From NCBI RefSeq assembly GCF_023195695.1, contig NZ_JALPQG010000005.1, positions 186,001 through 250,000 of the forward strand: a stretch of 64,000 nt of DNA, in the 5' to 3' direction. The translations under genes were made by a program, and so were the position numbers. Positions 5,187 through 30,182 of the stretch are shown piece by piece; positions within the stretch are counted from its first letter, which is position 1, and each line of letters starts with the position of its first letter. Source of the DNA: Aliiroseovarius sp. S1339 (GTDB lineage Bacteria; Pseudomonadota; Alphaproteobacteria; Rhodobacterales; Rhodobacteraceae). The notes under the pieces are model-generated. The model saw only the letters and a program-made list of their open reading frames with translations. It made no database searches and had not been told where the DNA came from.

Positions 5187-6167
5187 TCAGACAGCCAGTG
5201 TTGGCGTGAAAATCTGTTTTTCGCCTTCTTGGAATTTTCGGAGATCCAGCGGCCAACGTGCTTTTGGCCAGTATATCTCCATTTCCTGTTTTCTCGGCCG
5301 GTAGACCGCTGTGTAAAGCGTCCCGAAACCATGGTCGAACGCCGCAGAATAAAGCGGTGGTTTCAGAAATGCACCGATGAACTTTTCTTCGGGTTCAGTG
5401 TGTAACGTGAGGCGCTGAAGTAGGAAACGTTCACGCTCCACCGTCGCTGTAAGGCGCGCATGGCTTGCCCATTCCACCTTTTCCTGATGATTGGTCGCGA
5501 CGGCAGCGCGGGTAATCAGCGTCGGTCGATCCGGCGCCATCAACGCCGTCAGATATCGGCGTTTGGCGTCCACCACCGTTACATTATAGCTCATATGCGT
5601 TGGCACGCGCGCCAGCACTTTACCGGCTTCTTCCGCAGTCTCACAGGTTTGCAAAACATAGCGCAAGATCAAGGGCACGCCAAAGCCGTCACCGACCACC
5701 CGACGCCCACCAAACGTAAGCGAGATCGCAAGGCCCGCGTCGTTCATACCATCAACCAGCCCCCACAGGCCGTCACTGGTGCCCATCACGGTTCTGTCCT
5801 GCCATTTGGTGTGCAGGATCAGGCTGTCAAAGGCGTGCGGGCTGTAATCGTAATTGCGCACCAGAACCGGCTCTGCCCCCGGCCAGATTGCCTGAGAACA
5901 GCCGGACAAGTAGGCAGGCGGACAATAAAAGCTCAGAAACCGCGCTGCGTGGTCCGAACCACCAGCCAGTTCACAAAGCTCTTCATAAAGTGGTAGCATC
6001 TCGGGCATGTGCTTTTTCAGGGCTTGCAAGCTGTCCCAATATCCAGGTCGAGCTTCAGCACCTTCGCTCATCCACCAACGATGATAGGCGGGCCAATATT
6101 CCTGAAACAACCCGGCCCATTTGGGACCGGGTTTCGCTTCGGATATCGCGCGCCAATTCAGTCGCAT
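5187..6167 (-). CDS. C45-type Ntn hydrolase / acyltransferase
   Basis: 326-aa protein resembling the peptidase C45 / acyl-CoA:6-aminopenicillanate acyltransferase group of Ntn hydrolases. Members cut themselves before a Cys that becomes the N-terminal nucleophile and then hydrolyse or transfer linear amides. The likely nucleophile is Cys90 in LSGCSQAIW, followed by VLVRNYDYSP (residues 101-110), the typical R-N-x-D strand. The roughly 89 residues before it match the alpha chain of the family, and VATNHQ near residues 223-228 resembles the conserved Asn-His segment. The start has an AAGGGA site and lies 14 bases after the ATP-grasp stop, so it is the last gene of a four-gene operon. The true substrate is unknown. 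Confidence 0.8.
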   Translation of the reverse strand: MRLNWRAISEAKPGPKWAGLFQEYWPAYHRWWMSEGAEARPGYWDSLQALKKHMPEMLPLYEELCELAGGSDHAARFLSFYCPPAYLSGCSQAIWPGAEPVLVRNYDYSPHAFDSLILHTKWQDRTVMGTSDGLWGLVDGMNDAGLAISLTFGGRRVVGDGFGVPLILRYVLQTCETAEEAGKVLARVPTHMSYNVTVVDAKRRYLTALMAPDRPTLITRAAVATNHQEKVEWASHARLTATVERERFLLQRLTLHTEPEEKFIGAFLKPPLYSAAFDHGFGTLYTAVYRPRKQEMEIYWPKARWPLDLRKFQEGEKQIFTPTLAV

Positions 6168-6181
6168 TGATCCCTTTCCGC

Positions 6182-7642
6182 CTACAGGATCTTAAAGGCT
6201 GGATCGGCAAGTGCCGGCCCCGCCTCTGCCACCGGAAGGGGGCGACCAGACACGCCCTGCTTGATGCCGTGAATCCAACGCTTGCCGCGCTCGTTCAACT
6301 TGAACCCGGGCGTCATCGAGCGGCCACGCGTCACCAGAATACCGATGTCAGCCCCCTCATAGCGGTAATCACCCGGCTGCAGAATGCGCAGGAAAAATGC
6401 CTCGTTCTCGCTTTCAACTGCGCGGCGGTGATAGTCGAAGCGGTCAAAATTGATACTGCCGTCTTCACGCATTTTATATATGCCAGTTTCGGGCACTTCG
6501 GTCGCGATATCAACACTATCCTCGGTGTGCTTGATGACCATCTGCGACCAGCTGTCGATCATTGCGGGATCGGCCCAGCGGTTGTTCAGCTCGTTCACAT
6601 CCAACTCGAATTTCTTTTTCGAAAACTCGAGAAGATGGAACAGAAACAGCGGCGCGTCGGCATGCGCAAAGGCGGCATGGTTAGTCATTGAAGACGCGCC
6701 AGTAATCCGCGGGTTCAGCTCTCCCAGCCAGATGTCACCGGTCTTTTTGTCGATCAGAAAGTCCAGCTCGAAATAGCCGCGATAGCCTTCTTTGCGCAGC
6801 TGCTCGCCGAATTTAAAGGTCAACTCGCGGGCTTTCTGGCGCACTTTGGGGGGAAATGCCGTTGAAAGGATTTCGTTGCCACACCAGCCGCCTCGATACG
6901 GTGTCAATTCGTTGAAGCCGACAAGCTCGGTCATAAGCGGGCCAACGATTGTGCCTTGCTTGGTGGCGCAGGCCTCGATCGCGGATCCGCGGCAGTCGAT
7001 CCGCTTCATGATCTTGATCTCGCCTTCGCCCACGATTTCATGTTCGTGACGGCGGAAGTCAGACTCTGACTTGATGAAAAACGTCGTGTGACCGCTGTCC
7101 CCAAAGGCTGACTGCAACACCAGATCATGGCCGATGCCTGCTTTCTCGCAGGTCTTGCGCAGATCGTCGTAGTCTTTGACTTCGGCCAGCACGTTGGGCA
7201 CCGACGGCACCCCGGCCTTGTTGCCGATGCGCACGGTTTCGATCTTGTTGTCCATCTTCGTGCGCAGTTTAGCCTTGGGAAACCACACGTCGGCGCCAAG
7301 TTCTTTGGCCAGACGCTCGGTTTCCTCGTCGAACATCAGGAAAACAAATTTCGGCTTGCCGCCACGCCGCTTCACAAGGTCGATCACTTCCTTGTGCTGA
7401 AGAAGGTAGTTGTTGATATCCTCGATCGACTGGAATTCTGCATGCGGCTGCTCGGACGGACAGAACACGTTGGGATGCTTGCCATCGTAGCAGTCGATAT
7501 AGCATATGTATTTGAAATTCTTACACCATTCATCCAAACCCAACAGGTTGAAATTGGTCGCCGAAATAAAATAAATCGGGTCCTCGTTGCGGTGAAAATG
7601 ACGCCTGATTTCAGATATATTCTTGAGCACAGCTGTTGGCAT
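6182..7642 (-). CDS. ATP-grasp ligase, substrate unknown
   Basis: 486-aa ATP-grasp enzyme, often annotated as biotin carboxylase-like, although no other biotin-enzyme subunit is nearby. The ATP-grasp region begins around DNKIETVRIGNKAGVPSVP (131-149), a flexible loop QSAFGDSGHTTFF (177-189) follows, and the metal-binding end is YFELDF (290-295) plus GELNPRITG (307-315). The first 120 residues form an unrelated alpha/beta domain and the last 130 a family-specific tail. Such enzymes join a carboxylate to an amine or thiol through an acyl-phosphate. Its neighbours, a decarboxylase that makes amines and two amide-cleaving enzymes, suggest an amide or peptide-like product. The start has an AGGGAG site. 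Confidence 0.8.
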   Translation of the reverse strand: MPTAVLKNISEIRRHFHRNEDPIYFISATNFNLLGLDEWCKNFKYICYIDCYDGKHPNVFCPSEQPHAEFQSIEDINNYLLQHKEVIDLVKRRGGKPKFVFLMFDEETERLAKELGADVWFPKAKLRTKMDNKIETVRIGNKAGVPSVPNVLAEVKDYDDLRKTCEKAGIGHDLVLQSAFGDSGHTTFFIKSESDFRRHEHEIVGEGEIKIMKRIDCRGSAIEACATKQGTIVGPLMTELVGFNELTPYRGGWCGNEILSTAFPPKVRQKARELTFKFGEQLRKEGYRGYFELDFLIDKKTGDIWLGELNPRITGASSMTNHAAFAHADAPLFLFHLLEFSKKKFELDVNELNNRWADPAMIDSWSQMVIKHTEDSVDIATEVPETGIYKMREDGSINFDRFDYHRRAVESENEAFFLRILQPGDYRYEGADIGILVTRGRSMTPGFKLNERGKRWIHGIKQGVSGRPLPVAEAGPALADPAFKIL

Positions 7643-7665
7643 TGTCGTTCTCCCTGTTTTTGGTC

Positions 7666-10422
7666 TTATTTGTGTCGCGCGACATTCAGTTTCAGTCGCG
7701 CGGCATTCGTTTTCATCTGTTGCTTCAGGGCGTCTTGGGTAAATACCCGCAGCCCCAAATCTTCGCGATATCCGTGGATTTCGCTGACATCCAGCGCCCG
7801 CATGAAAGCCAAGATTTCCTGGCTGACGACCTGTCCGGGAACCAAGATCGGAAAGCCAGGCGGATAGGGGATAATGAACGAGGCCGACACAACATCATCG
7901 CCGCCTTCCAACGCGGATTTTAGTGACCCATCAAGCTCCAGATAATCACAGTTCTTTTCATCGTAGCTCAGGAAAAATGCCGAGCGGATATCGCCTTCGG
8001 ATGTTGCTTGATCCGTGCGGAAGCTGTCGTGGAACCGGCTGAAATCGGGCAGTGGCGGCAGATCATGCATCAGAGTGTTGACGCGTTTTTCAAATCCGCG
8101 CCGCTCCATGATCGAGGCATCATCAAGCAGGTCATCAAGGTCTGAGGCGATTTCGACCAGAACTTCGATCAGATAGGCGACGGATGATCGGGTTGTGCCA
8201 ATATTGGTCATGAACAAAACCGTATTGCGCGAGGTTTTGTTGATCTGAATCCCGTATTTATCCATAAGAATTTTGGTCTTGAACGTGTCCCCATCCCAAC
8301 CGGTGCCCCCAACGGCAAGGGTTACGCGGGTTGCGTCAAGCACGAATTCGTCCTGTTCCCAGCAATCCCAGATGTCGGTCCAGCCCTGCTCGGAATCATA
8401 GTAGCTTTGAACCCCACTTTCGCGGTGCTGTTCGGGGATCATGTCGCCGGCCGTCAAAACCTTGAAGTATTTCTGCAGCTTAGGATGGGTTGAGATCGCC
8501 CGGCGCATCGACATCGCGGCCTCTACCTGTCTTTGAACAAACTCGAAGCCCTCAAGCTCAACCTGACGTCTGCCCACATCCAACGAGGCGATGATCTGAT
8601 AATTCGGCGACGTTGAGGTATGGGTCATATAGGCTTCGCGAAAGCTGGCCTCGACCTCGCCCTTGAAGTCCTGATCGTTGACATGGATCATCGACCCCTG
8701 CCGCAGTGAGGTAAGGGTTTTGTGGGTCGAATGTGTCGCATAAACACGAATTCGAGCGTCCGGTGGCGGGATGAGGCGCGTGTTCAGGATGGTTTCTTCA
8801 TCGGCTTTCTCAAGCTGCTTTTGTTGTTCAAGATAGGCCTGTGCGTGGTCTTCGGTGCGCAATCGGTCACGCAGGTTGTTTGCCGCATTCATACCGGTGC
8901 GCTGGCGATAGGTCGGACCAAACCGGGCAAAAGCGAACCAGGCCTCATCCCACAGAAAAACAAGGTCGGGTTTAATCGCCAGACATTCTTCCATCACCCG
9001 TTCGACGTTGTAGACGATGCCGTCAAACGTGCAGTTCGTCAGCAGCAGCATCCGCACGCGGTCCAGCTTGCCCTCGGCCTTTAGTTTGAGCAGTTGATGC
9101 TTGATCTCACGCAGGGGTACCGCGCCATACATCGAATACTCATTCAACGGATAGCTATCGAGATAAACAACCTGCGCACCGGCCAGCACCATGCCGTAAT
9201 GGTGCGATTTATGGCAATCGCGATCCACCAGAACAATGTCGCCCGGCCGAATCAGACCCTGCACCACGATCTTGTTGCAGGTCGAGGTGCCGTTGGTGGC
9301 AAAAAATGTCTGCTTCGAGCCAAACGCGCGGCTTGCCAGTTCCTGCGCCTCTTTGATGGGGCCGTGCGGCTCCAGCAGGCTATCCAGACCACCTGATGTG
9401 GCCGAGGTCTCTGCCATGAAGATGTTGGGGCCGTAAAACGCGCCCATATCCTGAATCCAATGGCTGCGAGAAATGGATTTTCCGCGGCTGATTGGCAGGG
9501 CATGAAATACACCGGTGGGCTGCTTTGAATACTCGACCAGAGCGGTGAAAAACGGCGTTTTATAACGCGCTTGAACGCCGCGCAGGATGTTCAGATGAAG
9601 TTCAAGAAAGTCTTCTTGATTGTAAAACACGCGGCGGCAGATCCCCAGATCCAGCCCGGCAATATCCTCGACCGAGCGATCCGTGACCAGATAGGCATCA
9701 AGTTCGGGGCGGACTTTTGCGATCAACCTGCACAGTTCAGGTCCATAGTTTTCGGGCTCTAACGCCTCGATATCCTCAATCCCGCCTGCGCGATTCAGAT
9801 AGCGCGTCAGGATGGCCAGTTCGACCTGAGAATCCATTTTTAAACCGGGGCGCACAACGATGGCCTGAATGTTGTGGTTAAACAGCACCCCGATCAAGGC
9901 ATCTTGCAGGCTTGGGACCACCACGATTTCATAATGAAACGGGTCTTCCATGCGGCGCATGCGTGAGAAATTGTTCTTTAGCCAGCGTTCCTGATGCTCG
10001 TTCAGATCATCGACTACCATCACTTCGAAATAGGGCTTGGCTAGAGCGCGCGCTTCCAAAGACTGCACGACCTCGTCTTCATGTTCGTCGGTATCAACAC
10101 TGTCGCGTTCCAAAGGCACATGCCTGCGCCGATAGGCGCCCGTTGTCAGCGCCCGCGTGATGCGCTGAACCGAAAAGGCAACGTCGTCATATTTCCGATG
10201 CTCGAACTGGCGGCGAATGTTGTCAAACGCTTGCACACCCGGAAACGCCCAATAGGATTCAATCAGGGCCAGAGACTCGAATAGATGCGTGACTTGTTGC
10301 ACCAGCGCCTGTGCCTTTGCGCCCTCGGCGTCACGCGAAAGGGCCGCTGTGGCGTCGCGCAAAGCGCTCCAGCGGTCGGAACGCAGTTGTATCGCAGAGT
10401 AGTAGTCGCTCACGGATTGCAT
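7666..10422 (-). CDS. Orn/Lys/Arg decarboxylase family protein with extended N-terminus
   Basis: 918-aa PLP enzyme of the fold-III-like Orn/Lys/Arg decarboxylase group, which turns basic amino acids into diamines or agmatine. The PLP lysine is Lys568 in ATHSTHKTLTSLRQGS. A response-regulator-like wing domain begins near residue 132 (YFEVMVVDDLNEHQ), and about 130 extra helical residues precede it, making the protein longer than the usual 710-750 aa. The ATG at 10422 is preceded by GAGGGG at 9 bases, better than the in-frame GTG at 10449. It sits between the nitrilase-type gene and the ATP-grasp gene. Whether it uses arginine, lysine, ornithine or another amino acid cannot be read from the sequence. 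Confidence 0.9.
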   Translation of the reverse strand: MQSVSDYYSAIQLRSDRWSALRDATAALSRDAEGAKAQALVQQVTHLFESLALIESYWAFPGVQAFDNIRRQFEHRKYDDVAFSVQRITRALTTGAYRRRHVPLERDSVDTDEHEDEVVQSLEARALAKPYFEVMVVDDLNEHQERWLKNNFSRMRRMEDPFHYEIVVVPSLQDALIGVLFNHNIQAIVVRPGLKMDSQVELAILTRYLNRAGGIEDIEALEPENYGPELCRLIAKVRPELDAYLVTDRSVEDIAGLDLGICRRVFYNQEDFLELHLNILRGVQARYKTPFFTALVEYSKQPTGVFHALPISRGKSISRSHWIQDMGAFYGPNIFMAETSATSGGLDSLLEPHGPIKEAQELASRAFGSKQTFFATNGTSTCNKIVVQGLIRPGDIVLVDRDCHKSHHYGMVLAGAQVVYLDSYPLNEYSMYGAVPLREIKHQLLKLKAEGKLDRVRMLLLTNCTFDGIVYNVERVMEECLAIKPDLVFLWDEAWFAFARFGPTYRQRTGMNAANNLRDRLRTEDHAQAYLEQQKQLEKADEETILNTRLIPPPDARIRVYATHSTHKTLTSLRQGSMIHVNDQDFKGEVEASFREAYMTHTSTSPNYQIIASLDVGRRQVELEGFEFVQRQVEAAMSMRRAISTHPKLQKYFKVLTAGDMIPEQHRESGVQSYYDSEQGWTDIWDCWEQDEFVLDATRVTLAVGGTGWDGDTFKTKILMDKYGIQINKTSRNTVLFMTNIGTTRSSVAYLIEVLVEIASDLDDLLDDASIMERRGFEKRVNTLMHDLPPLPDFSRFHDSFRTDQATSEGDIRSAFFLSYDEKNCDYLELDGSLKSALEGGDDVVSASFIIPYPPGFPILVPGQVVSQEILAFMRALDVSEIHGYREDLGLRVFTQDALKQQMKTNAARLKLNVARHK

Positions 10423-10492
10423 CAAATGTTTCCCCTCAAAATCGGTCACAGGTCAGACTGAAGCGCAACCCCTCGTGAGAAGGACGTCAGGT

Positions 10493-11464
10493 TCAGCCGC
10501 TGCGTATCTTAGCAGAATGGTGCGGTGGTGTTGCCTGCACTGGTGCGGTGTCATCGCCCAACGCAGGTGTCGTATGACCTGGAACATCAACATGTAGTCC
10601 GGCACGCGAACCCTGCGACGGTGTTTCCAAAGGCCCGAGAGTCTTCAAATAAGAGTCGGTGCCGCTATCGCGGTCATAAACTGAAAAGTCGACAGATCGG
10701 TCGCGGAAGCTTTTCAAAACCTGACCCAACCCCTTCATTCCGGTTTCTCGCTGACGGCGCACTTGGTCCAAATCCAATTCAATCGGGAACATGTCCTCTT
10801 GTCCAGCAGACTGATGCAGAACCATTGACGTGGGATCAATCACACAGGATTTGCCGACGCCGCCAGCGCCCAGACCGTTGACGTCGATCACATAGCACTG
10901 AAATTGGGCTGCGGTGGCGCGTGCGATGGCCAGTTCGGCATCGCGGTCGGTGGTGCCGGTAAGAACCGGGTGCAGCAATACCTCAACACCTTGGCTGGTA
11001 AGCTGCCGGGTCGTTTCGGGAAACCAGATATCATAGCAGATCGACAAACCAAACCGGCCAACCTCGGGCACGTCGAACACGCAAAATCCGGCTCCTGCCT
11101 CAACGCCTGCTTCATACGGGCGGAAAGGAAACATCTTTCGGTAGGTCGCGACTGTTTCGCCCTGTGGGTTGATGACAGTCGACGTGTTGAAAATCTTGCC
11201 ATCTTCGGTTTTTTCAAACATTGACCCGGGTATCAGCCAAATCTTGTGCTTTATCGCAGCTTCGCGAAACCGGTCGATCGCTTCATTATGAAGCGGCAAG
11301 GCGAATTTGCTTAGCGGTCCGTAAGCGGCCAGCTCGCTGAACAAAACCATCTGGGTCCAGGGAAAGCGCGCCATTAAAATATCCAGACGGTGGATCATTC
11401 CGTCCACGTTTGGTTGCAATGCGTTTACATACATTTGCACACCGGCAATTGCGAATGGCGTCAT
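10493..11464 (-). CDS. Carbon-nitrogen hydrolase, nitrilase superfamily
   Basis: 323-aa amidase of the nitrilase fold. The catalytic triad is Glu44 (LFSELAAY), Lys110 (YRKMFPF) and Cys143 (SICYDIWFPE), so it should be active. The superfamily includes N-carbamoylputrescine amidase, omega-amidases and aliphatic amidases; the Cys context SICYD fits general carbon-nitrogen hydrolases. The last 35 residues are low-complexity and rich in Pro, Thr and Gly. A GGAG site lies 9 bases before the ATG. It is the first gene of the operon, 70 bases ahead of the decarboxylase, so it may act on an amide or carbamoyl amine derived from the decarboxylase product. No agmatine deiminase is nearby. Confidence 0.85.
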   Translation of the reverse strand: MTPFAIAGVQMYVNALQPNVDGMIHRLDILMARFPWTQMVLFSELAAYGPLSKFALPLHNEAIDRFREAAIKHKIWLIPGSMFEKTEDGKIFNTSTVINPQGETVATYRKMFPFRPYEAGVEAGAGFCVFDVPEVGRFGLSICYDIWFPETTRQLTSQGVEVLLHPVLTGTTDRDAELAIARATAAQFQCYVIDVNGLGAGGVGKSCVIDPTSMVLHQSAGQEDMFPIELDLDQVRRQRETGMKGLGQVLKSFRDRSVDFSVYDRDSGTDSYLKTLGPLETPSQGSRAGLHVDVPGHTTPALGDDTAPVQATPPHHSAKIRSG

Positions 11465-11481: not shown

Positions 11482-11760
11482 ATGAACAGCAGCTTCAGTC
11501 CAGACTACTCTGCTTTTGAAGGGAAGAACAACAGCCCGTCTTGGTCAGAAATTCCGGCCGAAGAACGGATCCAAGTGAATGGGCAGCGAAAGCTCGGATG
11601 CGCCTATAGCGAACACGCCCAGATATTGCTGCACGCGCACGCAGAACCTTTGGCACCGCATTCGCCTGTTGATTGCGAAGCGACAATCCCAACTATCTGG
11701 GTAATTGAGCGCAATTGTGATACAATAAATGTTCACATCGAAGATTGGGGGCTTCTATGA
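11482..11760 (+). CDS. Possible small ORF upstream of the M23-like gene
   Basis: A 92-codon reading frame starting MNSSFSPDYSAF and ending just where the next gene starts: its TGA (11758-11760) overlaps the ATG at 11757 in an ATGA junction. That junction is what coupled genes look like, but the ribosome site before 11482 is weak and the protein has no family I recognise. It fills most of the 292-base gap between the divergent nitrilase-type gene and the large secreted protein, a gap that must also hold their promoters. The frame could equally be open by chance. Confidence 0.25.
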   Translation: MNSSFSPDYSAFEGKNNSPSWSEIPAEERIQVNGQRKLGCAYSEHAQILLHAHAEPLAPHSPVDCEATIPTIWVIERNCDTINVHIEDWGLL

Positions 11761-14700
11761 AACAACGTCCCAAGATGACCACCGGGATGGCGTCGCTGCG
11801 GCATCTTGCGCTGCCCTTGGTCTGCCTGCTGCTCGCCCTGCCTGCCCATTCGCAGACCGTGACCGCCCCGGCCGGGTCGGGCATTGCCACGTCGACGATG
11901 CGAGTTCAGCCCCTTGATAACGCCCCCACGCCGTCCTTTATCGGCGGCTGGGAACCATTTGACGATGGCGTGTGGCTCAGCCTCGACCTCGACTTCACCA
12001 CGGGGAACGAGGACGTTGCGTTGGAAGAGGCCCGTGTCACTTACCGCGACGCAGGCGGCGCGGACGTCGCCTCGGCGACCGTGGGGTCACGCGATTTGTC
12101 CTTCGCAACACTCAGCCGCACAAACGCCACCTTGGGAACAGCCGTACCTGCAGCGTTTAACGATACCGGAGGGCGGCTTGACGACATGGGATCGTTCGGC
12201 TCGCAATGTATCCGCGATATCGAGATCGACTCGAACCAACTGCTCTATGCGGGCGGCACCGGAACCTCGTCACCGATATTTCCAGCCGTGGGCATATTCC
12301 CCAACGGATCGCTACTTGGCCGGTACGACGCTGCTGGCGGCAGAGACAACGGGTTCTCCGGCAACGGGTTGCTCTCCGTGCAAATCGACCATCCATTCAA
12401 CGAAGACGATGCAATCCGTCACGGAATCGCTGCCATCGCGACATCGCCTGTTGGCGACATTTGGACCGGCGGCGCCTCGTGGCTTGAAAACGTCCCGCAG
12501 GACGGTGAGGTCGACTCCTTCTGGACGCTGACCCGGATCGACGTGAACGGCGCGATAGATTTTCCTTTCGGGGTCAGGATCGTTGAACCTCAGACGGATG
12601 GCGGTGCCATTCGCGCCCTGGCCATAGACGACAGCTCGCGACCTGTCGCGGCTGGCTATATCCGCGTCGATGACCGGAACCGCGCGGCGCTCGCGACTTT
12701 CGGCCTTGGCGGCGATCTTGCCGCGGACTTCGGCCTGCGCGTCGCAAATTTTCTGCCGGCGGACACGGTTTCAACTTACACCGCGCTTGCCTATGACAGC
12801 ACTGACCGCCTTTACGCCACGGGTTGGTACGGCCCTCCGCAGGAGTTGGAGCCGGAACCCGGCCCACTGGAGGATCGCACATGGTTCGTCGCACGCTTTG
12901 CCGACGACGGCTCACTTGATGAGACGTTCGGAACCGACGGTCTGGTCGAGGTCGATTTCCTCGGGTTCGACAGGGCCTATCCGGGCGCGATGGTAATTGA
13001 CGACGAGGACCGGATCGTCACTGTCGGCAGCGTGTCGACGGGTGACGGCATCAACGCTCAGGCGGCATTCTCGCGATTGCTGCCATCGGGCGCGCCAGAC
13101 GATACGTTTCAGCCCCTATTCAGCGGCACTGGCCAGTTCGTCACCGATGCTGGCATTGGCGGCCTGGTCGGTGCGACGGATGTGGTCATTGACTCGCAGG
13201 ATCGCATCGTCGCGTCGCTGGCTACCGTGGACGCATTCGCAGCCATCCGGCTTGAAGGGGCGGACGGGGCTGCCGATGCAGCCTTTGGAGATGGCGGCGT
13301 TGTGGTCCATGCCCACCCCGACACACCTAACCAGGACGGAAGCTTCGCATCCTCCATAGCGGTCGCCTCGGGCAACCGTATCGTTCTCGGCGGTTGCGCT
13401 ACAGCGGATGATGACGAGCGCAATTTTGCCCTGATGCGCCTATTGGAGGACGGCAGTCTCGATTCCAATGCCAATCAGCTGCCCGCCAACACCCGCGTCA
13501 TCCTCGCCTTCCCGGATGAAGCATTGCCGGATGACGAACGGCAGATGCCTTTCACCGGCACCCCTCCCGCGACGGTTGATGTCGAATTGGATCTGCGAGA
13601 GATCGCGTCGGGCGATGTTTGGACCATCTCCTGGACCGACATTCCCGCGCCGAACTTGGTTGCGGTTCCTCTACCGGATCCACTGCAATCCTATATCTTT
13701 CCACTTGCTCCGACGCAGGTGGTTGTCCCCTTACCGGACGACGAAGCCTGCGCCCTCATCGACGATGACGACGTGGGCGACGACGAAACCGCACCGCCCG
13801 CCCCGGACCTATTCTATTACGTTTCCAACGGGCATGAGCTGCGCTATGGCGACATTGAAACCTCGCACCGTGCGCTGGTGCAGTCCCTCAACACGGCGTC
13901 CGCATCCAACGATCAGCGCCACGCCTACGATATTGTCGTGCGCGACCAAGACGGTGGCAGCAACGTCGGCCTCGACGCGGCGTGCAACCCGATCGCCACC
14001 AACACCAACGCGACCGCCTATATCTGGGGCCAGTCGGTCATTGCGGCGGCAGATGGGAACATCGTGACGCTGGATAGCAGCCAGCCCGAAAATCCATCCC
14101 CGGGCGTCCGCTTGGCCGGTGTGCCGCGCGGCGGCAACTCCGTCACCATTGACCATGGTAACGGCCAGTTCACCCGCTATTCGCACATGCAAGCCGGGTC
14201 GATCCCCAACAACCTCGCGGCTCTCAACAACCTGGGTATGTGCCCGGCCGGACAGGTCTGCACCGTCACGCAGGGCGATCTGCTGGGTGTTGTCGGCAAC
14301 TCGGGCAACAGCTCAGGGCCGCACCTGCACTTTGTTCTGATGGACGGCTCGAACGCCAATACCGACGAAGGTCGGCCGATCACTTTCTCGAACATCATGT
14401 TCGGGGACATGAACCAGACCAATGTGGCGATTCACACGCGCCAACTGATCAATAACGTCATGCCGATCCCTTCCATGATCGTACTTAACCCGCCCTCGCC
14501 CGCCGGTCTCATCGCCGAGATCGAGGACAACGACGCGGTTGAGGATCATCAAGCCCTGACCCCGCCGACGATCGTGCAGGGTGAAATCTCGGACAGCGAA
14601 AGCCCAACGCTGGCGGTGCGCGGCGACCCTGTGGAAGATATCTACCGGTTCGAAACGGACACCCGCGCGCAGGCCGTGATCCGCCTCACGCCGACATCGC

Positions 14701-15776
14701 GGAACGGCGATCTGAACGTCTACCTGCTAAATGACGGCCTTCTGATGCTGAACCCTGATGGCGCGGGCTGGGGGACAGGCAGCACCGAGGAAATCGTCAC
14801 AACCCTGGCGCCGGGCCGTTACTATGTCGCCGTCTCGGATGCCGATGACGGCAGCGGGGCGACCTACGACCTCGACATCGAACTCAAACCATTCGCTTGG
14901 CAATACTCGGCCAAGGTCGTCTGCGGCACCCAGACTGATGCAGACGATGGCCGTCTGACACCGGGTCGTTACGCCACCACGGTCAACATCCACAATCCGG
15001 GCGCGACGCCAGCGCTGATCCACAAGAAACTGGCGCTGGCCTATCCGCCAGCCGAACAGACACCGGGGCAGATCTTGGAAATCGGCGAAGACGACCTCGG
15101 CTACGATCAGGCGGTCAAGACCGACTGCGCCGATATCGATCGCAACGCCCTGTCGGAAACGACATTGGGCGGCGCAACCTACTACGAAGGCTTCGTTGTG
15201 GTCGAAAGCACCGAGCGTCTGGACGTCACCGTCGTCTATTCAACTGCCGCGCTGGACAACAGTGGCAACGTCGCTTCGCAAAGCTCCATCGATGTGGAAC
15301 AGATCACCGAGCGCGGTCTGGGTGTGGATCTGTCGGTCGACAAGACCGCACAAGACTTCGTGTTACGGATGGGCGCCAGAGAGCTTCACTTCATCCTTTA
15401 TACTGTCGAAATCGGCAATCTCGGCCCGGCGACGGCTACCGACGTTTATCTGGTGGACGAGATGTCTCTGGGCCTTCTAAACGCGGATGGCATTATTGGG
15501 CTGCTGCCCGCTCCGCTGGACTTGCCCGCGACCGGCGCTCTGCTGTCGATCAACTATCCGTCCTTGACCGAATCCGTGGCGGAGTTTGACGTTGGCAGCA
15601 TCGCCGCAGGAACCACCCGCACGATCAGGTTCTGGGGCGCGGCCGTCGCGGCCGGGGGCGAAGACGGCAGCCCGGCATTGGCGGTCGTCGAAAACCGCGC
15701 CACCATCCGCGCCGGCCCGGTCGAACTGCTGGAGGACGACAATACCGCAACCGTTAACACCCAGATCCTGCCATGA
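11757..15776 (+). CDS. Large secreted M23-peptidase-like multidomain protein
   Basis: 1339-aa exported protein. Residues 1-33 are a signal peptide (hydrophobic LALPLVCLLLALPAHSQ). About 250-580 hold repeats of the delta-60 type, with units like DRIVTVGS and RLLPSGAPDDTF. An M23 (lysostaphin-like) domain covers roughly 720-880: the zinc motifs are HAYD (His722, Asp725) and the pair His856/His858 in GPHLHF, with YSHM between them. A pre-peptidase C-terminal-type domain (EIEDNDAVEDHQAL onward, about 920-1040) and a DUF11-like repeat (about 1190-1339) follow. A GGGGG site sits 7 bases before the ATG; an in-frame TTG at 11745 is less likely. It may cleave peptidoglycan or only bind it or another surface polymer. 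Confidence 0.8.
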   Translation: MKQRPKMTTGMASLRHLALPLVCLLLALPAHSQTVTAPAGSGIATSTMRVQPLDNAPTPSFIGGWEPFDDGVWLSLDLDFTTGNEDVALEEARVTYRDAGGADVASATVGSRDLSFATLSRTNATLGTAVPAAFNDTGGRLDDMGSFGSQCIRDIEIDSNQLLYAGGTGTSSPIFPAVGIFPNGSLLGRYDAAGGRDNGFSGNGLLSVQIDHPFNEDDAIRHGIAAIATSPVGDIWTGGASWLENVPQDGEVDSFWTLTRIDVNGAIDFPFGVRIVEPQTDGGAIRALAIDDSSRPVAAGYIRVDDRNRAALATFGLGGDLAADFGLRVANFLPADTVSTYTALAYDSTDRLYATGWYGPPQELEPEPGPLEDRTWFVARFADDGSLDETFGTDGLVEVDFLGFDRAYPGAMVIDDEDRIVTVGSVSTGDGINAQAAFSRLLPSGAPDDTFQPLFSGTGQFVTDAGIGGLVGATDVVIDSQDRIVASLATVDAFAAIRLEGADGAADAAFGDGGVVVHAHPDTPNQDGSFASSIAVASGNRIVLGGCATADDDERNFALMRLLEDGSLDSNANQLPANTRVILAFPDEALPDDERQMPFTGTPPATVDVELDLREIASGDVWTISWTDIPAPNLVAVPLPDPLQSYIFPLAPTQVVVPLPDDEACALIDDDDVGDDETAPPAPDLFYYVSNGHELRYGDIETSHRALVQSLNTASASNDQRHAYDIVVRDQDGGSNVGLDAACNPIATNTNATAYIWGQSVIAAADGNIVTLDSSQPENPSPGVRLAGVPRGGNSVTIDHGNGQFTRYSHMQAGSIPNNLAALNNLGMCPAGQVCTVTQGDLLGVVGNSGNSSGPHLHFVLMDGSNANTDEGRPITFSNIMFGDMNQTNVAIHTRQLINNVMPIPSMIVLNPPSPAGLIAEIEDNDAVEDHQALTPPTIVQGEISDSESPTLAVRGDPVEDIYRFETDTRAQAVIRLTPTSRNGDLNVYLLNDGLLMLNPDGAGWGTGSTEEIVTTLAPGRYYVAVSDADDGSGATYDLDIELKPFAWQYSAKVVCGTQTDADDGRLTPGRYATTVNIHNPGATPALIHKKLALAYPPAEQTPGQILEIGEDDLGYDQAVKTDCADIDRNALSETTLGGATYYEGFVVVESTERLDVTVVYSTAALDNSGNVASQSSIDVEQITERGLGVDLSVDKTAQDFVLRMGARELHFILYTVEIGNLGPATATDVYLVDEMSLGLLNADGIIGLLPAPLDLPATGALLSINYPSLTESVAEFDVGSIAAGTTRTIRFWGAAVAAGGEDGSPALAVVENRATIRAGPVELLEDDNTATVNTQILP

Positions 15777-23882: not shown

Positions 23883-24722
23883 CTACCGCACCAGCCCGAT
23901 GCAGATGATCCCAGCCCCGACAGCCGCAGCCGACAAAAGCCGCCGTGCCCTCGGCCCTTCGCCGAACCAGAGCACCCCGATCAGGGCGGCAAAGATCACC
24001 GACGTTTCGCGCAGCGCGGACACGATGCCCAGCGGCGCGATGGTCTTGGCATAAAGCACCAGCGCATAGGCTGTGCCAGACACGACGCCCCCCATGAACC
24101 CGATCAGCAAAGTTCTGGGCGGTTGTGTGCGCAGCCGGTCCATCCGGCTTGGAAACAGGAACAGGACGATCAGGATTTTCGACAGGAACAGCCAGCCGAT
24201 ATAGCCCAGCGCGTGGCCGGAGGTTCGCACTCCGAACCCGTCGACCAGTGTGTAGGCCACAACCGTGCCGCCAATCGCCAAGGCGGCCAGAAGCGCATTT
24301 CTGGACATGGCACTACCAAACGCGCCTTGGGCCAGAAATATGATCCCCGCCGAGACGCTGAAGATGCCAATCCATGCTTGAAGCGGAAGCGTTTCGCCCA
24401 CCCAGAACTGCGCGCCCAAGGCGACAAGAACCGGGGCAAAGCCGCGCGCCACGGGATAGATGAAACTCAGATCACCCAGACGATAGGCGACGTTCAGGAA
24501 GTAGAAATACAGCCAGTGGATCACGATGGACGCGACCATAAACGGCCATGCCGACGGGTCCGGGAAGGGCACGAACCCGATGAAGGTCAAGGCAAATGCC
24601 ACATGCCCCAAGGCAATCATGCCCAACATGATCACCCTGTCCCCTGCCCCTTTCACCAGCGCATTCCACAGCGCATGCAGGAAGGCCGCCGAGAGGACAA
24701 TCAAGGCGACCTGAGCGGTCAT
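23883..24722 (-). CDS. EamA/DMT-family transporter
   Basis: 279-aa inner-membrane protein with about ten hydrophobic helices in two EamA repeats, typical of the drug/metabolite transporter superfamily, which mostly exports amino acids and metabolites. Its ATG overlaps the stop of the pbfA-like gene by four bases (ATGA), so it is translated with that enzyme and probably serves the aminophosphonate pathway, for example by moving a substrate or removing a side product. Direction and substrate are unknown. Confidence 0.88.
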   Translation of the reverse strand: MTAQVALIVLSAAFLHALWNALVKGAGDRVIMLGMIALGHVAFALTFIGFVPFPDPSAWPFMVASIVIHWLYFYFLNVAYRLGDLSFIYPVARGFAPVLVALGAQFWVGETLPLQAWIGIFSVSAGIIFLAQGAFGSAMSRNALLAALAIGGTVVAYTLVDGFGVRTSGHALGYIGWLFLSKILIVLFLFPSRMDRLRTQPPRTLLIGFMGGVVSGTAYALVLYAKTIAPLGIVSALRETSVIFAALIGVLWFGEGPRARRLLSAAAVGAGIICIGLVR

Positions 24723-26074
24723 GCCGCGTCTTTGATGGCCGTCACCACGATATCCAGCGCGCGGTCCAAATCGTCACGCGCGATGGTCAGGGGCGGCGAC
24801 AGGGTCAACACGCAGCCTTGACTGATCTTAAAGCTCAGACCCGCTTCGAGACAGGTGTAATAGATCCGTTCAGCCCGCGCGTTGCCGGGGGTTTTCAAGG
24901 TCCGATCCTCGACGATTTCAACGCCGAACATCAGGCCGCGACCGCGAATGTCCCCGACAATCGGGACATCTTGCAAACGATCCCGGAGCACTTGCATCGC
25001 GTGGGTGCCAAGCTCGGCGGATCGGGCGACCAATCCTTCTTCCTCAATGATCTCGATGGTGGTCAGGGCGGCGCGGGATGTAACCGGGTTCTTCTCGTGC
25101 GTGTAATGCCCGATGGCAAAGTCTCCGCATACATCCAATTCTTTGCGAGCCACGCAAGCGGCAATCGGAAGAATGCCACCACCCAGCGCTTTGCCCATGG
25201 TGACGATGTCGGGGATGATCTCGTCATGTTCAAACGCGAACATTTTGCCCGTCTTGCCCAGCCCGGTCGGGATTTCATCCATGATCAGCAGCGCGCCGTG
25301 GCGGTTGCACGCCTCGCGCACAGATTTCCAGAAACCGGGGGGCGGAACATACGGCACCGCACGCATGGGTTCAGCGATCACCGCCGCCACATCGCCTTCG
25401 CGTTCCAACACATACTCGACCATCTTGGCGCAGGCCAATCCGCAGGTGTCAGGGCTTTCGTGATTGTATGGGCAGCGGTAGCAGGCGAAGGGTGCGACGT
25501 GCTCGGTGCCCGACAGAAGCGGCCCCGCGATGTGGCTGCGGAACGTCGCCTCGCCCCCCACGCTGGCAGCCCCCATACCTGCCCCATGAAACGCATCCCA
25601 GAACGAGATGGTCTTGAACCGCCCCGTCGCTGCGCGGGCGATTTTCAACGCCACCTCATTGGCGTCTGAACCGCCGGTGGTGAACAGAACCTTGCCCAGA
25701 TCGCCGGGCGCAATCGCGGCCAGCTTTTCAGCCAATTCGACCGCCGGATCGTTGGTGAAGCGGCGCGGGGCAAAGGGCAGATCATCCAGTTGCGCCTTGA
25801 TCGCAGCAATCAGCTTGGGGTGACCGTAACCGATGTGATGCACAGAATTTCCATGAAAATCCATGAACTTGCGACCATCTGCATCCTCGATCCAGATACC
25901 GTCCGCCTTGGCAATGGTGCTGACACACGGGCTGGAGAGGCTTTGGTGCATGAACGCCTTGGCGTCGCGTTTTAGAAGCGGAGCAGAGTTCGGGCCGATG
26001 GATTTCTTCAACCAAGACTGCCGGGCGTCTGACGTGTTGGATTCGCCTTCGGTGTGAACGATTTTCTTGGTCAT
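24719..26074 (-). CDS. pbfA: PLP enzyme of class III aminotransferase fold, likely PbfA-type hydroxyaminoethylphosphonate ammonia-lyase
   Basis: 451-aa PLP enzyme of the class III aminotransferase fold. The PLP lysine is in VTMGKALGGGILPIA, the cofactor-binding Asp in LLIMDEIPTGLG and the phosphate-group loop in TTGGSDANEVAL. By sequence alone it would be a generic aminotransferase. Known PbfA enzymes of this fold convert (R)-1-hydroxy-2-aminoethylphosphonate to phosphonoacetaldehyde and ammonia, and their genes sit with phnW, phnY and phnA, as here. The assignment rests on this context. It follows phnY after 74 bases that hold a strong hairpin, and overlaps the EamA gene. Confidence 0.7.
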   Translation of the reverse strand: MTKKIVHTEGESNTSDARQSWLKKSIGPNSAPLLKRDAKAFMHQSLSSPCVSTIAKADGIWIEDADGRKFMDFHGNSVHHIGYGHPKLIAAIKAQLDDLPFAPRRFTNDPAVELAEKLAAIAPGDLGKVLFTTGGSDANEVALKIARAATGRFKTISFWDAFHGAGMGAASVGGEATFRSHIAGPLLSGTEHVAPFACYRCPYNHESPDTCGLACAKMVEYVLEREGDVAAVIAEPMRAVPYVPPPGFWKSVREACNRHGALLIMDEIPTGLGKTGKMFAFEHDEIIPDIVTMGKALGGGILPIAACVARKELDVCGDFAIGHYTHEKNPVTSRAALTTIEIIEEEGLVARSAELGTHAMQVLRDRLQDVPIVGDIRGRGLMFGVEIVEDRTLKTPGNARAERIYYTCLEAGLSFKISQGCVLTLSPPLTIARDDLDRALDIVVTAIKDAA

Positions 26075-26087
26075 GGTGCCTCAATTG

Positions 26088-26120
26088 AAAAAGGTGAGGC
26101 TCAGATATCTGAGCCTCACA
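26088..26120 (-). terminator. Perfect palindrome plus T-run between phnY and the pbfA-like gene
   Basis: The 26 bases at 26095-26120 are a perfect palindrome (arm GTGAGGCTCAGAT). On the minus strand it is followed by CCTTTTTC and, a few bases later, the ribosome site of the pbfA-like gene. A hairpin plus T-run is the form of an intrinsic terminator, here placed inside an apparent operon, so it may let only part of the transcripts continue. It could also be a protein operator, since such long perfect palindromes are often regulator sites. Confidence 0.7.
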
Positions 26121-26148
26121 GTCAGGGAGGAAATATGAGCCGCGACCC

Positions 26149-27597
26149 CTAGTTTGGCCAGGGCAGCGAATAGGTTTTCACGTTGGTAAAGAACTTCATC
26201 GCCTCGATCACGCCTTCCTTGACGGCGTTGCCACTGTCCTTGATCCCGCCAAAAGGCGACATTTCGATACGGTAGCCGGGCTGTTCCCAGATGTTGCAAG
26301 TGCCGACATCCAAACCGTTGATATAGGCAATCGCGCGGTGCAGATCGTTGGTGCAAACACCCGATGACAGCCCGAATTGGGTCGAGTTCGAGATCGCCAT
26401 AACCTCGTCATCATTGTCAGGCACACGCACGATCGGGATGATTGGGCCGAAGGTTTCCTCCATCACCAATTCGCTGTCATGGGGCACGTGGTCCACCACG
26501 ATGGGTGGCAGAAGCGCGCCGTCGCGTCCGGGGTGATACAGAATTTTCGCGCCGTCTTTCTCGGCCATGAACACACGTTTTTCGAAAAGCTCTGCGGCCT
26601 GCGCATGGATCACGCAGCCCAGTTCCGTTTTGGGGTCTTGTGGATCGCCGAACTTGATTGCCTTGGCCTTAGCCAGCACCAGCGGAACAAACCTGTCGGC
26701 GACGCTTTCCTGCACAAGAATACGTTTGATGGCTGTGCAGCGTTGCCCGGAATTTCCTGTGGCCCCCGCCACCGCGATGGTCGCAGCCTTGTCCAGATCG
26801 GCGTCGTTCAGATCGTTGCAGACGATCAACGGATCGTTGCCGCCAAGCTCCAGCGCCTGCCGTTTGTAGGCCGCCTTTTCGGCGATCATCTTGCCCACCG
26901 GCACACCACCCGTGAAGGTAATGATGTCGATATTTTCATTGACGATCATCTCTTCCCCGATGTCCTGCGGCCAGCCAGTGACAACCTGAAACATCTCGGG
27001 CGGCAGTCCCGCCTCATAGAGGATATCGGCCAGCGCAATCGCGGTCAGGGGCGTCAGTTCGGTCGGCTTGCACACCATGCAGTTGTTGGTCGCAATCGAC
27101 GGGGCAATCTTGTGGCTGACCATGTTCAGCGGATGGTTGAACGGTGTGATCGCGCTGATCGCTTTCACCGGTTCGCGCTTGGTGAAAATCTTGCGTTCTT
27201 TGCCGTTATGGGTCAGGTCGCACGAGAAAATCTCGCCGTCATCATTCATCGCCTGCTGGGCGGCAAATTGATACACATCCTGCGCGCGCTTGGTCTCGTA
27301 AATGGCGTGCTGGTGGCAGATGCCAAGCTCCAACGTCAGCCATTTGGCCAGAAATTCACGCCGCTCGCCGATCAATTCGCCTGCCCGCTGCAGGATTTGC
27401 GACCGTTCATAGCGTGACAATTTCGATTTGTAGTTCGCGGCAATCTCGAATGCTTTGCGCGCGTGTTCGGCTTGGCCTGCTGCAACCGTACCAATCACTT
27501 CATCGGTGTATGGATACTTCACCGGGACGACATCGTCGGTGAACACGATCTCGCCCCCGATGCGCATCCCTTCGTGTCGAATATCGTCTTCGCTCAT
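26149..27597 (-). CDS. phnY: Phosphonoacetaldehyde dehydrogenase
   Basis: 482-aa NAD-dependent aldehyde dehydrogenase that oxidises phosphonoacetaldehyde to phosphonoacetate. The catalytic Cys is in [15 protein letters not shown], the general-base Glu in [10 protein letters not shown] and the oxyanion Asn in [13 protein letters not shown]. The family is assigned from its position between phnA and the pbfA-like gene and from overall likeness to PhnY. The ATG at 27597 has AAGGA 7 bases upstream; an in-frame ATG at 27612 lies next to that site and is less likely. The start overlaps no gene but lies 16 bases after phnA. Confidence 0.9.
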
Positions 27598-27613
27598 CAC
27601 GTTATCCTTCATA

Positions 27614-28858: not shown

Positions 28859-28876
28859 TAAGTCTTTCCTTCGTAT

Positions 28877-30064: not shown

Positions 30065-30182
30065 GATCTATCTCCGAAAGGGGGAACTCAAGAACAGCAT
30101 TGCAGTAACTTTATCCATATGTGAAATTGCAATTAACAATCAAAGCATAGGTTTTTCTTATGTCTAAAAATGCAGGAATTTC
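30065..30182. promoter_or_regulatory. Divergent regulatory region, phnW and LysR gene
   Basis: 118 AT-rich bases between the divergent phnW and LysR genes. It holds a 10-bp perfect palindrome AATTGCAATT at 30125-30134 and the ribosome sites of both genes. By the usual LysR arrangement the regulator should bind here and control both directions. The exact site is not proven by the sequence. Confidence 0.55.

What the first reader, a model, noticed from the sequence alone, without database searches (positions are those of the whole stretch)
5187..11464. Four-gene operon joining a nitrilase, a long PLP decarboxylase, an ATP-grasp ligase and a C45 Ntn hydrolase
The four genes are on one strand with gaps of 70, 23 and 14 bases and good ribosome sites, so they are one unit. 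The parts suggest amine formation by decarboxylation, amide or peptide-type bond formation by ATP-grasp, and two distinct amide-cleaving or acyl-transferring enzymes. Known arginine-to-putrescine routes use a nitrilase-type amidase but need an agmatine deiminase, which is absent. I know no named pathway with these four parts. It could make an acylated or peptidyl polyamine, or degrade one.
Basis: partly seen in the sequence, partly recalled or inferred. Interest (0 to 1): 0.78.

Follow-up and report, generated by a model that had tools for sequence, protein, structure and literature searches.

The report
Conserved four-enzyme amine/amide operon
Four neighbouring bacterial genes (an amidase, an unusually long amino acid decarboxylase, an ATP-driven ligase and a self-cutting amide hydrolase) are inherited together in many bacteria, usually as one block, and look like an uncharacterised pathway that feeds basic amino acids or their amines into GABA-type breakdown, though its exact substrate is still unknown.

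Summary
In detail: four genes on the minus strand (10493-11464, 7666-10422, 6182-7642, 5187-6167), gaps 70, 23 and 14, conserved catalytic residues intact. The proposed refutation (not co-inherited) fails. In 198 genomes of the family, ligase, decarboxylase, C45 and amidase occur in 36, 32, 38 and 37; no decarboxylase without the ligase (Fisher 7e-33 to 9e-39, uncorrected for phylogeny). In another class the genes stay together in other orders. Four ligase genomes lack the decarboxylase but keep ligase, C45 and amidase, so it is the exchangeable part. Recurrent neighbours (class III aminotransferase in 46 of 80 loci, 21 of them GABA type; importer; PuuR-like regulator; elsewhere ureohydrolase, keto-arginine or ectoine-utilisation genes) favour catabolism of arginine-type compounds to omega-amino acids; semialdehyde dehydrogenase is not enriched in the 80. 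The ligase is named 'biotin carboxylase' but lacks that enzyme's catalytic motif. C45 matches isopenicillin N acyltransferase (Z 29.6). The decarboxylase is kin to Rv2531c, of unresolved activity; the glutamate postulated to hold lysine is asparagine in 33 of 33 long forms. Best model: ligase acylates an arginine-family amine, C45 removes the group; substrates are inferred. Ten open-access searches found no paper on the set.

The parts
10493..11464 (-). NIT: nitrilase-superfamily amidase, 323 aa; triad E44, K110, C143
   Evidence: PF00795 105.3 bits; E44, K110, C143 invariant in 16 of 16 rows; below the cut-off of all ten NCBIfam models it matched, e.g. formamidase 74.7 vs 406, AguB 68.1 vs 410. 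That these three are the triad is family knowledge (recalled).
7666..10422 (-). DEC: long-form PLP decarboxylase of the Orn/Lys/Arg fold, 918 aa; PLP lysine K568 in STHK
   Evidence: PF01276 257.9 bits; 837 bits over residues 13-902 to the chains 9n0n/9n0o; 9N0O is listed as Rv2531c in PMC12910592; H567, K568 and D492 invariant in 14 of 14 rows; start by Shine-Dalgarno and homologues
10432..10437 (-). Shine-Dalgarno GAGGGG, 9 nt before ATG 10422
   Evidence: read
6182..7642 (-). LIG: ATP-grasp ligase of the biotin carboxylase/PurK fold, 486 aa
   Evidence: NF005096 755.3 bits, cut-off 684; model pLDDT 90.1; best fold matches Z 23.6 (propionyl-CoA carboxylase) and 23.5 (carboxyaminoimidazole ribonucleotide synthase); E308, N310, P311, R312 invariant in 28 of 28 rows
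5187..6167 (-). C45: N-terminal-nucleophile acyltransferase/hydrolase proenzyme, 326 aa; nucleophile C90
   Evidence: NF040521 185.9 bits, cut-off 85; C90, R104, N105, Y106, D107 invariant in 24 of 24 rows; model pLDDT 91.9; best fold match precursor isopenicillin N acyltransferase 2x1c, Z 29.6, 3.2 A over 302 residues

Best explanation
A co-inherited catabolic cassette that feeds arginine/lysine-family compounds into omega-amino acid degradation (GABA, perhaps 5-aminovalerate, then succinate or glutarate). SHOWN (computed): the four genes are one block, co-inherited, with conserved catalytic residues; ligase plus C45 (plus amidase in most lineages) is the core and the decarboxylase is exchangeable; class III aminotransferases, importers and a PuuR-like regulator recur beside it in the family, and ureohydrolase, keto-arginine or ectoine-utilisation genes in some other lineages. 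INFERRED: DEC decarboxylates an amino acid to an amine; LIG activates a carboxylate with ATP and joins it to the amino group of that amine or of the omega-amino acid, as PuuA glutamylates putrescine; aminotransferase and dehydrogenase oxidise the shielded chain; C45 cleaves the amide again, as isopenicillin N acyltransferase removes a side-chain-linked amino acid (recalled); NIT hydrolyses a primary amide or carbamoyl intermediate; the freed omega-amino acid goes to a GABA-type transaminase. In strains without DEC the keto-arginine route can supply the same level of the pathway. Which acyl group and which amine are used is not known.
For: Co-inheritance over 198 family genomes: LIG 36, DEC 32 (all in LIG genomes), C45 38 (36 shared), NIT 37 (36 shared) (Fisher 7.0e-33, 1.6e-37, 8.5e-39). 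Orders differ elsewhere: NIT-LIG-C45-DEC (L127, L128, L130), NIT-DEC-LIG-C45 (L089, L124, L157), NIT and C45 divergent from DEC-LIG (L131), DEC-LIG-C45 (Rhizobium, L132, L133, L164). Context in 80 named loci: class III aminotransferase 46 (best match GABA type 21, PRK07483 type 25), TAXI-TRAP permease 35, Usp 25, GltS-like 21, PuuR-like 17, CaiB 10; in 11 control stretches 1, 0, 0, 0, 0, 0 (controls not a random sample). L157: SSADH, GABA transaminase and agmatinase-family ureohydrolase divergent from NIT-DEC-LIG-C45. L169/L170: ureohydrolase upstream. L158 and the Shinella, XES5 and RAC02 plasmids: NIT, LIG and C45 with 5-guanidino-2-oxopentanoate decarboxylase, ureohydrolase, D-amino acid dehydrogenase and racemase genes. 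L128: set inside doeA, doeB ... doeD, eutB, with ehuR near; L127 alike by BLAST. L183/L184: PuuR-like, GABA transaminase and a CaiB gene nearest to succinate-glutarate CoA-transferase, under its cut-off.
Against: No substrate, product or activity is known for any of the four proteins. In the 80 named loci SSADH-like hits are only 5, against 2 of 11 controls, and a ureohydrolase was not found there (1 of 11 controls), so the GABA-to-succinate and arginine readings rest on the aminotransferase, the regulator and a few other lineages. Thirty-four of the 80 have no class III aminotransferase hit, some because the contig ends (24 of 61 full-length loci lack it). In keto-arginine versions no amine is formed, so shielding of a diamine cannot be the common role there. 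No oxidase or ALDH lies in the four-gene block, and here the operon has no GABA genes beside it. The genome also holds a C26 peptidase (203.9 bits) and six glutamine-synthetase-like places, so a classical Puu-type route may exist already. Asn in place of LdcI Glu526 argues against a strongly basic side chain. The PuuR-like proteins are below the equivalog cut-off (148.5 and 125.8 vs 211). DEC-LIG-C45 in L132, L133, L164 and the rhizobia lacks NIT and GABA genes. The odds were lowered from 0.33 to 0.30 after this recount.
Confidence: 0.3

Rival explanations
1. Biosynthesis of an acylated or aminoacylated amine (osmolyte, signal or natural product): DEC makes the amine, LIG joins it to an acid, C45 or NIT tailors or recycles it.
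For: Decarboxylase, ATP-grasp ligase and amide hydrolase are the parts of such a route. A rhizobial copy lies beside nifHDKE on a plasmid, and a 2026 paper lists SMa0680/SMa0682 among FixJ-activated genes (passage). L132, L133 and L164 have DEC-LIG-C45 without recognised catabolic neighbours.
Against: Importers and aminotransferases recur in the family loci. No exporter was recognised among the genes typed, but most neighbours were not typed.
Confidence: 0.22
2. DEC acts on a neutral or acidic amino acid: for example glutamine to 4-aminobutyramide, which NIT hydrolyses to GABA, or citrulline to N-carbamoylputrescine; LIG and C45 then handle GABA conjugates.
For: Asn at the position of LdcI Glu526 and PGQ for PGE in 33 of 33 long forms and in Rv2531c; Glu526 is a postulated lysine-binding residue (PMC5607190 passages). 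Of six ligase-free long forms looked at on plasmids, four sit beside AspT-type antiporters (not so), as does the second copy in L196. GABA-type aminotransferase near 21 of 80 loci.
Against: One substitution does not set specificity; Asn can still bond a guanidinium or ammonium group. The AspT antiporters may belong to aspartate 4-decarboxylase, which is close by in two of the four plasmid loci.
Confidence: 0.17
3. LIG carboxylates nitrogen (a biotin-independent, PurK-like carbamate-forming enzyme acting on urea, guanidine or an amine) and the hydrolases split the product.
For: Fold neighbours are biotin carboxylases and PurK; ureohydrolases are neighbours in L157, L158, L169, L170 and three Shinella-type plasmid loci; a gene with a urea-transporter domain lies upstream in L132.
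Against: The catalytic stretch of biotin carboxylase is replaced by T/S-G-A, although PurK lacks it too (recalled). No ureohydrolase hit near any of the 80 named loci.
Confidence: 0.08
4. A loose acid-stress or nitrogen-scavenging island whose genes act in separate pathways.
For: Long decarboxylases without the ligase occur with antiporters and, on one plasmid, an HdeA/HdeB chaperone gene.
Against: Tight co-inheritance and retained adjacency in shuffled order in at least two classes.
Confidence: 0.07

Closest known systems
Puu gamma-glutamylated putrescine pathway (PuuA-B-C-D-E, PuuR; recalled)
   Same: ATP-dependent ligase and amide hydrolase around amine oxidation; GABA-type transaminase and a PuuR-like regulator among the neighbours
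   Different: Ligase and hydrolase are of other folds; no PuuB/PuuC genes in the block; the PuuR-like proteins are below the cut-off; a decarboxylase and a nitrilase-family amidase are added
Arginine decarboxylase-AguA-AguB route to putrescine
   Same: Decarboxylase plus nitrilase-superfamily amidase
   Different: No agmatine deiminase in the genome; NIT is far below the AguB cut-off; ligase and C45 have no place in it
Arginine/lysine oxygenase and keto-arginine routes (guanidinobutyrate to GABA; 5-aminovaleramide to glutarate; recalled)
   Same: Nitrilase-type amidase (recalled for these routes), ureohydrolase, GABA-type transaminase; keto-arginine genes joined to NIT, LIG and C45 in four loci
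   Different: No monooxygenase seen among the genes typed; an ATP-grasp ligase and a C45 enzyme are not part of those routes as I recall them
M. tuberculosis Rv2531c, the closest solved decarboxylase
   Same: 837 bits over nearly the whole protein; same Asn and PGQ substitutions
   Different: Its genome was not searched here for a ligase partner; a January 2026 review says its activity was not clarified (passages of PMC12910592)
Acyl-CoA:isopenicillin N acyltransferase (C45)
   Same: Whole proenzyme fold, Z 29.6, 302 residues; conserved Cys nucleophile
   Different: 12% identity; an ATP-grasp ligase partner instead of a beta-lactam cluster
Butirosin BtrJ/BtrK (ATP-grasp plus PLP decarboxylase; BtrJ recalled)
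   Same: Ligase and decarboxylase cooperate on an amino acid chain (BtrK is mentioned in a passage of PMC8503589)
   Different: Needs a carrier protein (recalled); the decarboxylase is of another fold; no C45

Membership tests
Biotin carboxylase (name of NF005096) | NF005096 score above curated cut-off | tested here: met
   755.3 vs 684
Biotin carboxylase (name of NF005096) | Q294-V295-E296 after R292 (E. coli numbering, recalled; an E296A mutant is listed) | tested here: not met
   R312 is followed by I/V, T/S, G, then A in 23 of 28 rows
Biotin carboxylase (name of NF005096) | Biotinyl carrier domain in the protein or the operon | tested here: not met
   No biotinyl domain among Pfam hits of the four proteins at E 0.001
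Carboxylate-amine ligase of the ATP-grasp superfamily | ATP-grasp fold with ExNPR metal/phosphate motif | tested here: met
Carboxylate-amine ligase of the ATP-grasp superfamily | Forms an amide from acid, amine and ATP | not testable with these tools
   Needs an assay
Orn/Lys/Arg decarboxylase (OKR) family | Major domain, PLP lysine and Asp of DEAW | tested here: met
   PF01276 257.9 bits; K568 and D492 invariant in 14 rows
Orn/Lys/Arg decarboxylase (OKR) family | OKR C-terminal domain above cut-off | tested here: inconclusive
   PF03711 23.1 vs 24.2
Orn/Lys/Arg decarboxylase (OKR) family | Acidic residue at LdcI Glu526 for the basic side chain (postulated, PMC5607190) | tested here: not met
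   Asn728 in 33 of 33 and Asn in Rv2531c
Nitrilase superfamily | Glu-Lys-Cys triad | tested here: met
   E44, K110, C143 in 16 of 16 rows
N-carbamoylputrescine amidase (AguB) | TIGR03381 above cut-off | tested here: not met
   68.1 vs 410.25
C45 / isopenicillin N acyltransferase-like | NF040521 above cut-off, conserved Cys nucleophile, proenzyme fold | tested here: met
   185.9 vs 85; C90 in 24 of 24 rows; Z 29.6
C45 / isopenicillin N acyltransferase-like | Autoproteolysis | not testable with these tools
   Needs protein
Puu pathway | PuuA, PuuB, PuuC and PuuD in the operon | tested here: not met
   The four ORFs belong to other families
AguA-AguB pathway | Agmatine deiminase encoded in the genome | tested here: not met
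   PF04371: none in G000

The most novel reading that the evidence does not exclude
A route for arginine/lysine-family compounds, not found in the searches made, in which a biotin-free carboxylase-fold ligase puts an acyl group on an amine and a C45 Ntn hydrolase takes it off, fed by a third, long form of the Orn/Lys/Arg decarboxylase fold with a changed substrate pocket. It would give a pathway context for a decarboxylase family that includes the unresolved Rv2531c and, by inference, the FixJ-controlled SMa0680/SMa0682.
Probability: 0.3. Interest if true: 0.8.

Novelty: new variant of a known kind. Interest (0 to 1): 0.62.

Why it matters
The set is widespread (ligase in 36 of 198 genomes of this family and in 10 of 369 and 11 of 385 genomes of two class samples). 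Ligase copies lie on plasmids, 24 of 32 such records typed as conjugative, one beside nif genes. The ligase is misnamed 'biotin carboxylase' in public annotation. The set ties a decarboxylase form of unresolved activity to partners, and so turns 'what does it decarboxylate?' into a small, testable list. If confirmed it adds a route in nitrogen metabolism of marine and plant-associated bacteria.

Tried and rejected
Considered and set aside. (1) LIG as a true biotin carboxylase: catalytic motif missing, no carrier domain. (2) AguA-AguB route: no deiminase in the genome. (3) A natural-product cluster in this window: no tailoring or export gene among the directly flanking genes typed. (4) The window's other class III aminotransferase and aldehyde dehydrogenase (24719-27639) as part of the set: they belong to an aminoethylphosphonate cluster. 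(5) Promoter and terminator scan: fewer sites than in shuffles, uninformative. (6) The Rv2531c structure paper PMC12329521 is not held, so its text was not seen. (7) L-amino acid ligases were not among the 50 fold matches shown for LIG; that does not exclude them. (8) A glutaryl-CoA dehydrogenase beside the set in L184: the gene is an acyl-CoA dehydrogenase whose best hits are FadE 267, acryloyl-CoA reductase 236 and glutaryl-CoA dehydrogenase 226 bits, all under cut-off, so I do not use it.

Weak points: gene calls come from my own simple ORF picker, which mis-called shadow ORFs in GC-rich loci (one search missed the set in L127); counts were therefore taken from tblastn or from profile searches. 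The 80 named loci are the best 80 of 287 and close relatives of the query; five bear only the class name Alphaproteobacteria. The control set (11 stretches, 208 kb) is not random: eight of its nine loci were fetched for a C45 paralogue, and its two other stretches are from the window. It held SSADH hits in 2, a ureohydrolase in 1 and a class III aminotransferase in 1. Of the 34 unnamed-genome loci, DEC was missing in 10, NIT in 10 and C45 in 2; several end at contig edges, and L163 and L165 are too short to claim absence. Profile thresholds were E 1e-60, 1e-60, 1e-25 and 1e-60. The DEC-absent label on the ligase tree (5 changes, 4 forced) includes such short loci; L194 was dropped from that tree because my reading frame held stops.


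Full report
Observation. The four ORFs lie head to tail on the minus strand at 11464-10493 (NIT), 10422-7666 (DEC), 7642-6182 (LIG) and 6167-5187 (C45), with gaps of 70, 23 and 14 bases and a Shine-Dalgarno-like sequence before each start. The long decarboxylase starts at ATG 10422, as homologues also show. The flanking genes are a convergent mannitol-dehydrogenase-family gene and a divergent 1343-aa ORF, unrelated by family.

Families. NIT is a nitrilase-superfamily amidase with its Glu, Lys and Cys invariant in 16 rows and below the cut-off of all ten NCBIfam models it matched. DEC has the Orn/Lys/Arg decarboxylase major domain and is related over residues 13-902 to the solved 'probable amino acid decarboxylase' 9n0n/9n0o; a table in PMC12910592 gives 9N0O for Rv2531c, and passages of that review say the activity was not clarified. 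LIG belongs to NF005096, named biotin carboxylase, and its model (pLDDT 90.1) is closest to biotin carboxylases (Z 23.6, 3.9 A, 392 residues) and PurK-type enzymes (Z 23.5, 4.5 A, 353 residues), but the Gln-Val-Glu catalytic stretch is T/S, G and mostly A in its place. C45 has an invariant Cys90 in 24 of 24 rows, and its model (pLDDT 91.9) matches the precursor of isopenicillin N acyltransferase over 302 residues with Z 29.6, well above N-acylethanolamine amidase at 23.5.

Co-inheritance. A genome scan found 287 ligase relatives; the best 80 were kept, by title Rhodobacteraceae-type genera, five with only the class name. In these, DEC was found in 80, C45 in 79 and NIT in 74, in one order; every miss is a locus that ends at a contig edge. 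As a test not tied to the ligase I searched 198 genomes of the family with each profile: LIG in 36, DEC in 32, C45 in 38, NIT in 37. DEC never occurred without LIG; four LIG genomes (G1125, G1129, G1187, G1265) lack DEC but have NIT and C45 close by; C45 without LIG occurs in G1119 and G1152 and NIT without LIG in G1119. Fisher tests give 7.0e-33, 1.6e-37 and 8.5e-39, without correction for shared ancestry. In class samples the ligase is in 10 of 369 and 11 of 385 genomes at E <= 1e-60, and in a phylum sample 8 of 398 exceed the NF005096 cut-off.

Shuffled orders. Outside the family the same genes stay together in other orders: NIT-LIG-C45-DEC (L127, L128, L130), NIT-DEC-LIG-C45 (L089, L124, L157, L169), NIT and C45 divergent from DEC-LIG (L131), DEC-LIG-C45 without NIT (L132, L133, L164 and Rhizobium/Sinorhizobium plasmids). 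Retained adjacency in new orders argues for a shared function. A ligase tree needs five changes of the DEC-absent label, at least four forced by well supported branches, with the caveat that some loci are short.

Context. In the 80 named loci, within 10 kb of LIG: class III aminotransferase 46 (best match GABA type in 21, PRK07483 type in 25), TAXI-TRAP permease 35 and its binding protein 34, universal stress protein 25, glutamate-synthase-like 21, PuuR-like regulator 17, CaiB-like 10, SSADH-like 5. In 11 control stretches the counts are 1 for the aminotransferase, 2 for SSADH and 0 for the other six, so SSADH is not enriched in the family loci. Of six aminotransferases typed, four pass a GABA transaminase model (L044, L183, L184, L157) and two are other class III types (L025, L128). 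The PuuR-like proteins typed are below the PuuR cut-off. Among the 34 unnamed-genome loci an aminotransferase is near 11, SSADH-like hits near 8, PuuR-like 4, ureohydrolase 4. L157 has SSADH (TIGR01780 691 vs 646), GABA transaminase (819 vs 724) and an agmatinase-family ureohydrolase divergent from the set. L158 and the Shinella, Roseateles XES5 and Sinorhizobium RAC02 plasmids have NIT, LIG and C45 but no DEC at the locus, joined to genes annotated or matching as 5-guanidino-2-oxopentanoate decarboxylase, ureohydrolase, aldehyde dehydrogenase, D-amino acid dehydrogenase and racemase, that is, the keto-arginine route to GABA; XES5 has a lone DEC elsewhere on the plasmid. In L128 the whole set sits inside the ectoine utilisation genes doeA, doeB ... 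doeD, eutB, with ehuR nearby (typed), and L127 is alike by BLAST. L183 and L184 (no DEC in the genome) carry a PuuR-like gene, GABA transaminase and a CaiB gene nearest to succinate-glutarate CoA-transferase (533 bits, cut-off 750, in L184).

Decarboxylase pocket. LdcI Glu526, postulated to bind the lysine side chain (PMC5607190, passages read; the residue match is my count on the alignment), is Asn728 in 33 of 33 long forms and Asn in Rv2531c; the PGE motif is PGQ. PMC4832331 passages mention a negatively charged patch lining the active-site channel of LdcI. Of six ligase-free long forms looked at on plasmids, four sit beside AspT-type antiporters and two do not; the second copy in L196 has one too. 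So the long form may prefer a less basic substrate; this is inference. PMC8503589 (passages) describes forms of about 480-490 and 710-755 residues; the passages seen do not mention this longer one.

Function. The common denominator of the contexts is the level of omega-amino acids: arginine to guanidinobutyrate or GABA, GABA to succinate, and a weak hint of glutarate. An ATP-dependent ligase and an amide hydrolase that nearly always occur together suggest that an acyl group is put on and taken off, as glutamate is in the Puu pathway. I commit to that model at 0.30 (0.33 before the recount of SSADH and of the aminotransferase types), with the amide direction and partners unproven. Its main difficulty is the keto-arginine version, in which no amine is formed; there the ligase must act on the omega-amino acid, on arginine or on something imported.

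Literature. Ten searches of the open-access library were made; aimed at the set or its ligase-hydrolase pair, and no listed paper describes the four genes; subscription journals are not covered, and listings were cut. S. meliloti SMa0680/SMa0682, described in PMC2912261 as putative decarboxylases, are listed as FixJ-activated in PMC13327599. That they are the pSymA copy in L091 is inference from the plasmid and the annotation.

Noticed in passing
window 24719-31073: 2-aminoethylphosphonate catabolism cluster: PbfA-type ammonia-lyase, phosphonoacetaldehyde dehydrogenase, phosphonoacetate hydrolase, PhnW, and a LysR-type regulator under its cut-off. Known kind, unrelated to the operon.
   Followed up: yes
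window 11745-15776: 1343-aa ORF with M23 peptidase, DUF5122, PPC and DUF11 matches (the DUF11 match, 23.8 bits, is just under its cut-off), divergent from the operon.
   Followed up: no
L196 5090-11322: A second, ligase-free long decarboxylase (50% to the operon type) followed by an AspT-family antiporter that passes TIGR03802 and by an untyped gene of similar size.
   Followed up: partly
L174 9517-10170: Only a C-terminal remnant of the ligase remains, in a 217-aa frame with a different N-terminus, directly before C45; TRAP, NIT and DEC are not found there, as if a deletion had removed the middle of the cassette.
   Followed up: no
L187-L189, L191-L193: A C45 paralogue without ligase lies directly after a gene of about 340-370 aa, typed in L189 as a PHB-depolymerase-type esterase; small genes resembling the RHH_8 regulator typed in L157 lie before it in some loci.
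   Followed up: partly
L132 3483-5657: Urea-transporter plus M23 peptidase fusion upstream of DEC-LIG-C45; a gene with a similar start lies upstream in L133.
   Followed up: no
L085, and hits H25-H32: On rhizobial plasmids several copies look partial or split: the decarboxylase match in L085 starts at residue 128, and the ligase hits H25-H32 cover only 38-41% in two pieces.
   Followed up: no
L183 7219-7746: Glyoxalase-family gene beside NIT (PF00903); genes with a similar start near the sets in L161 and L162 were not typed by Pfam.
   Followed up: no
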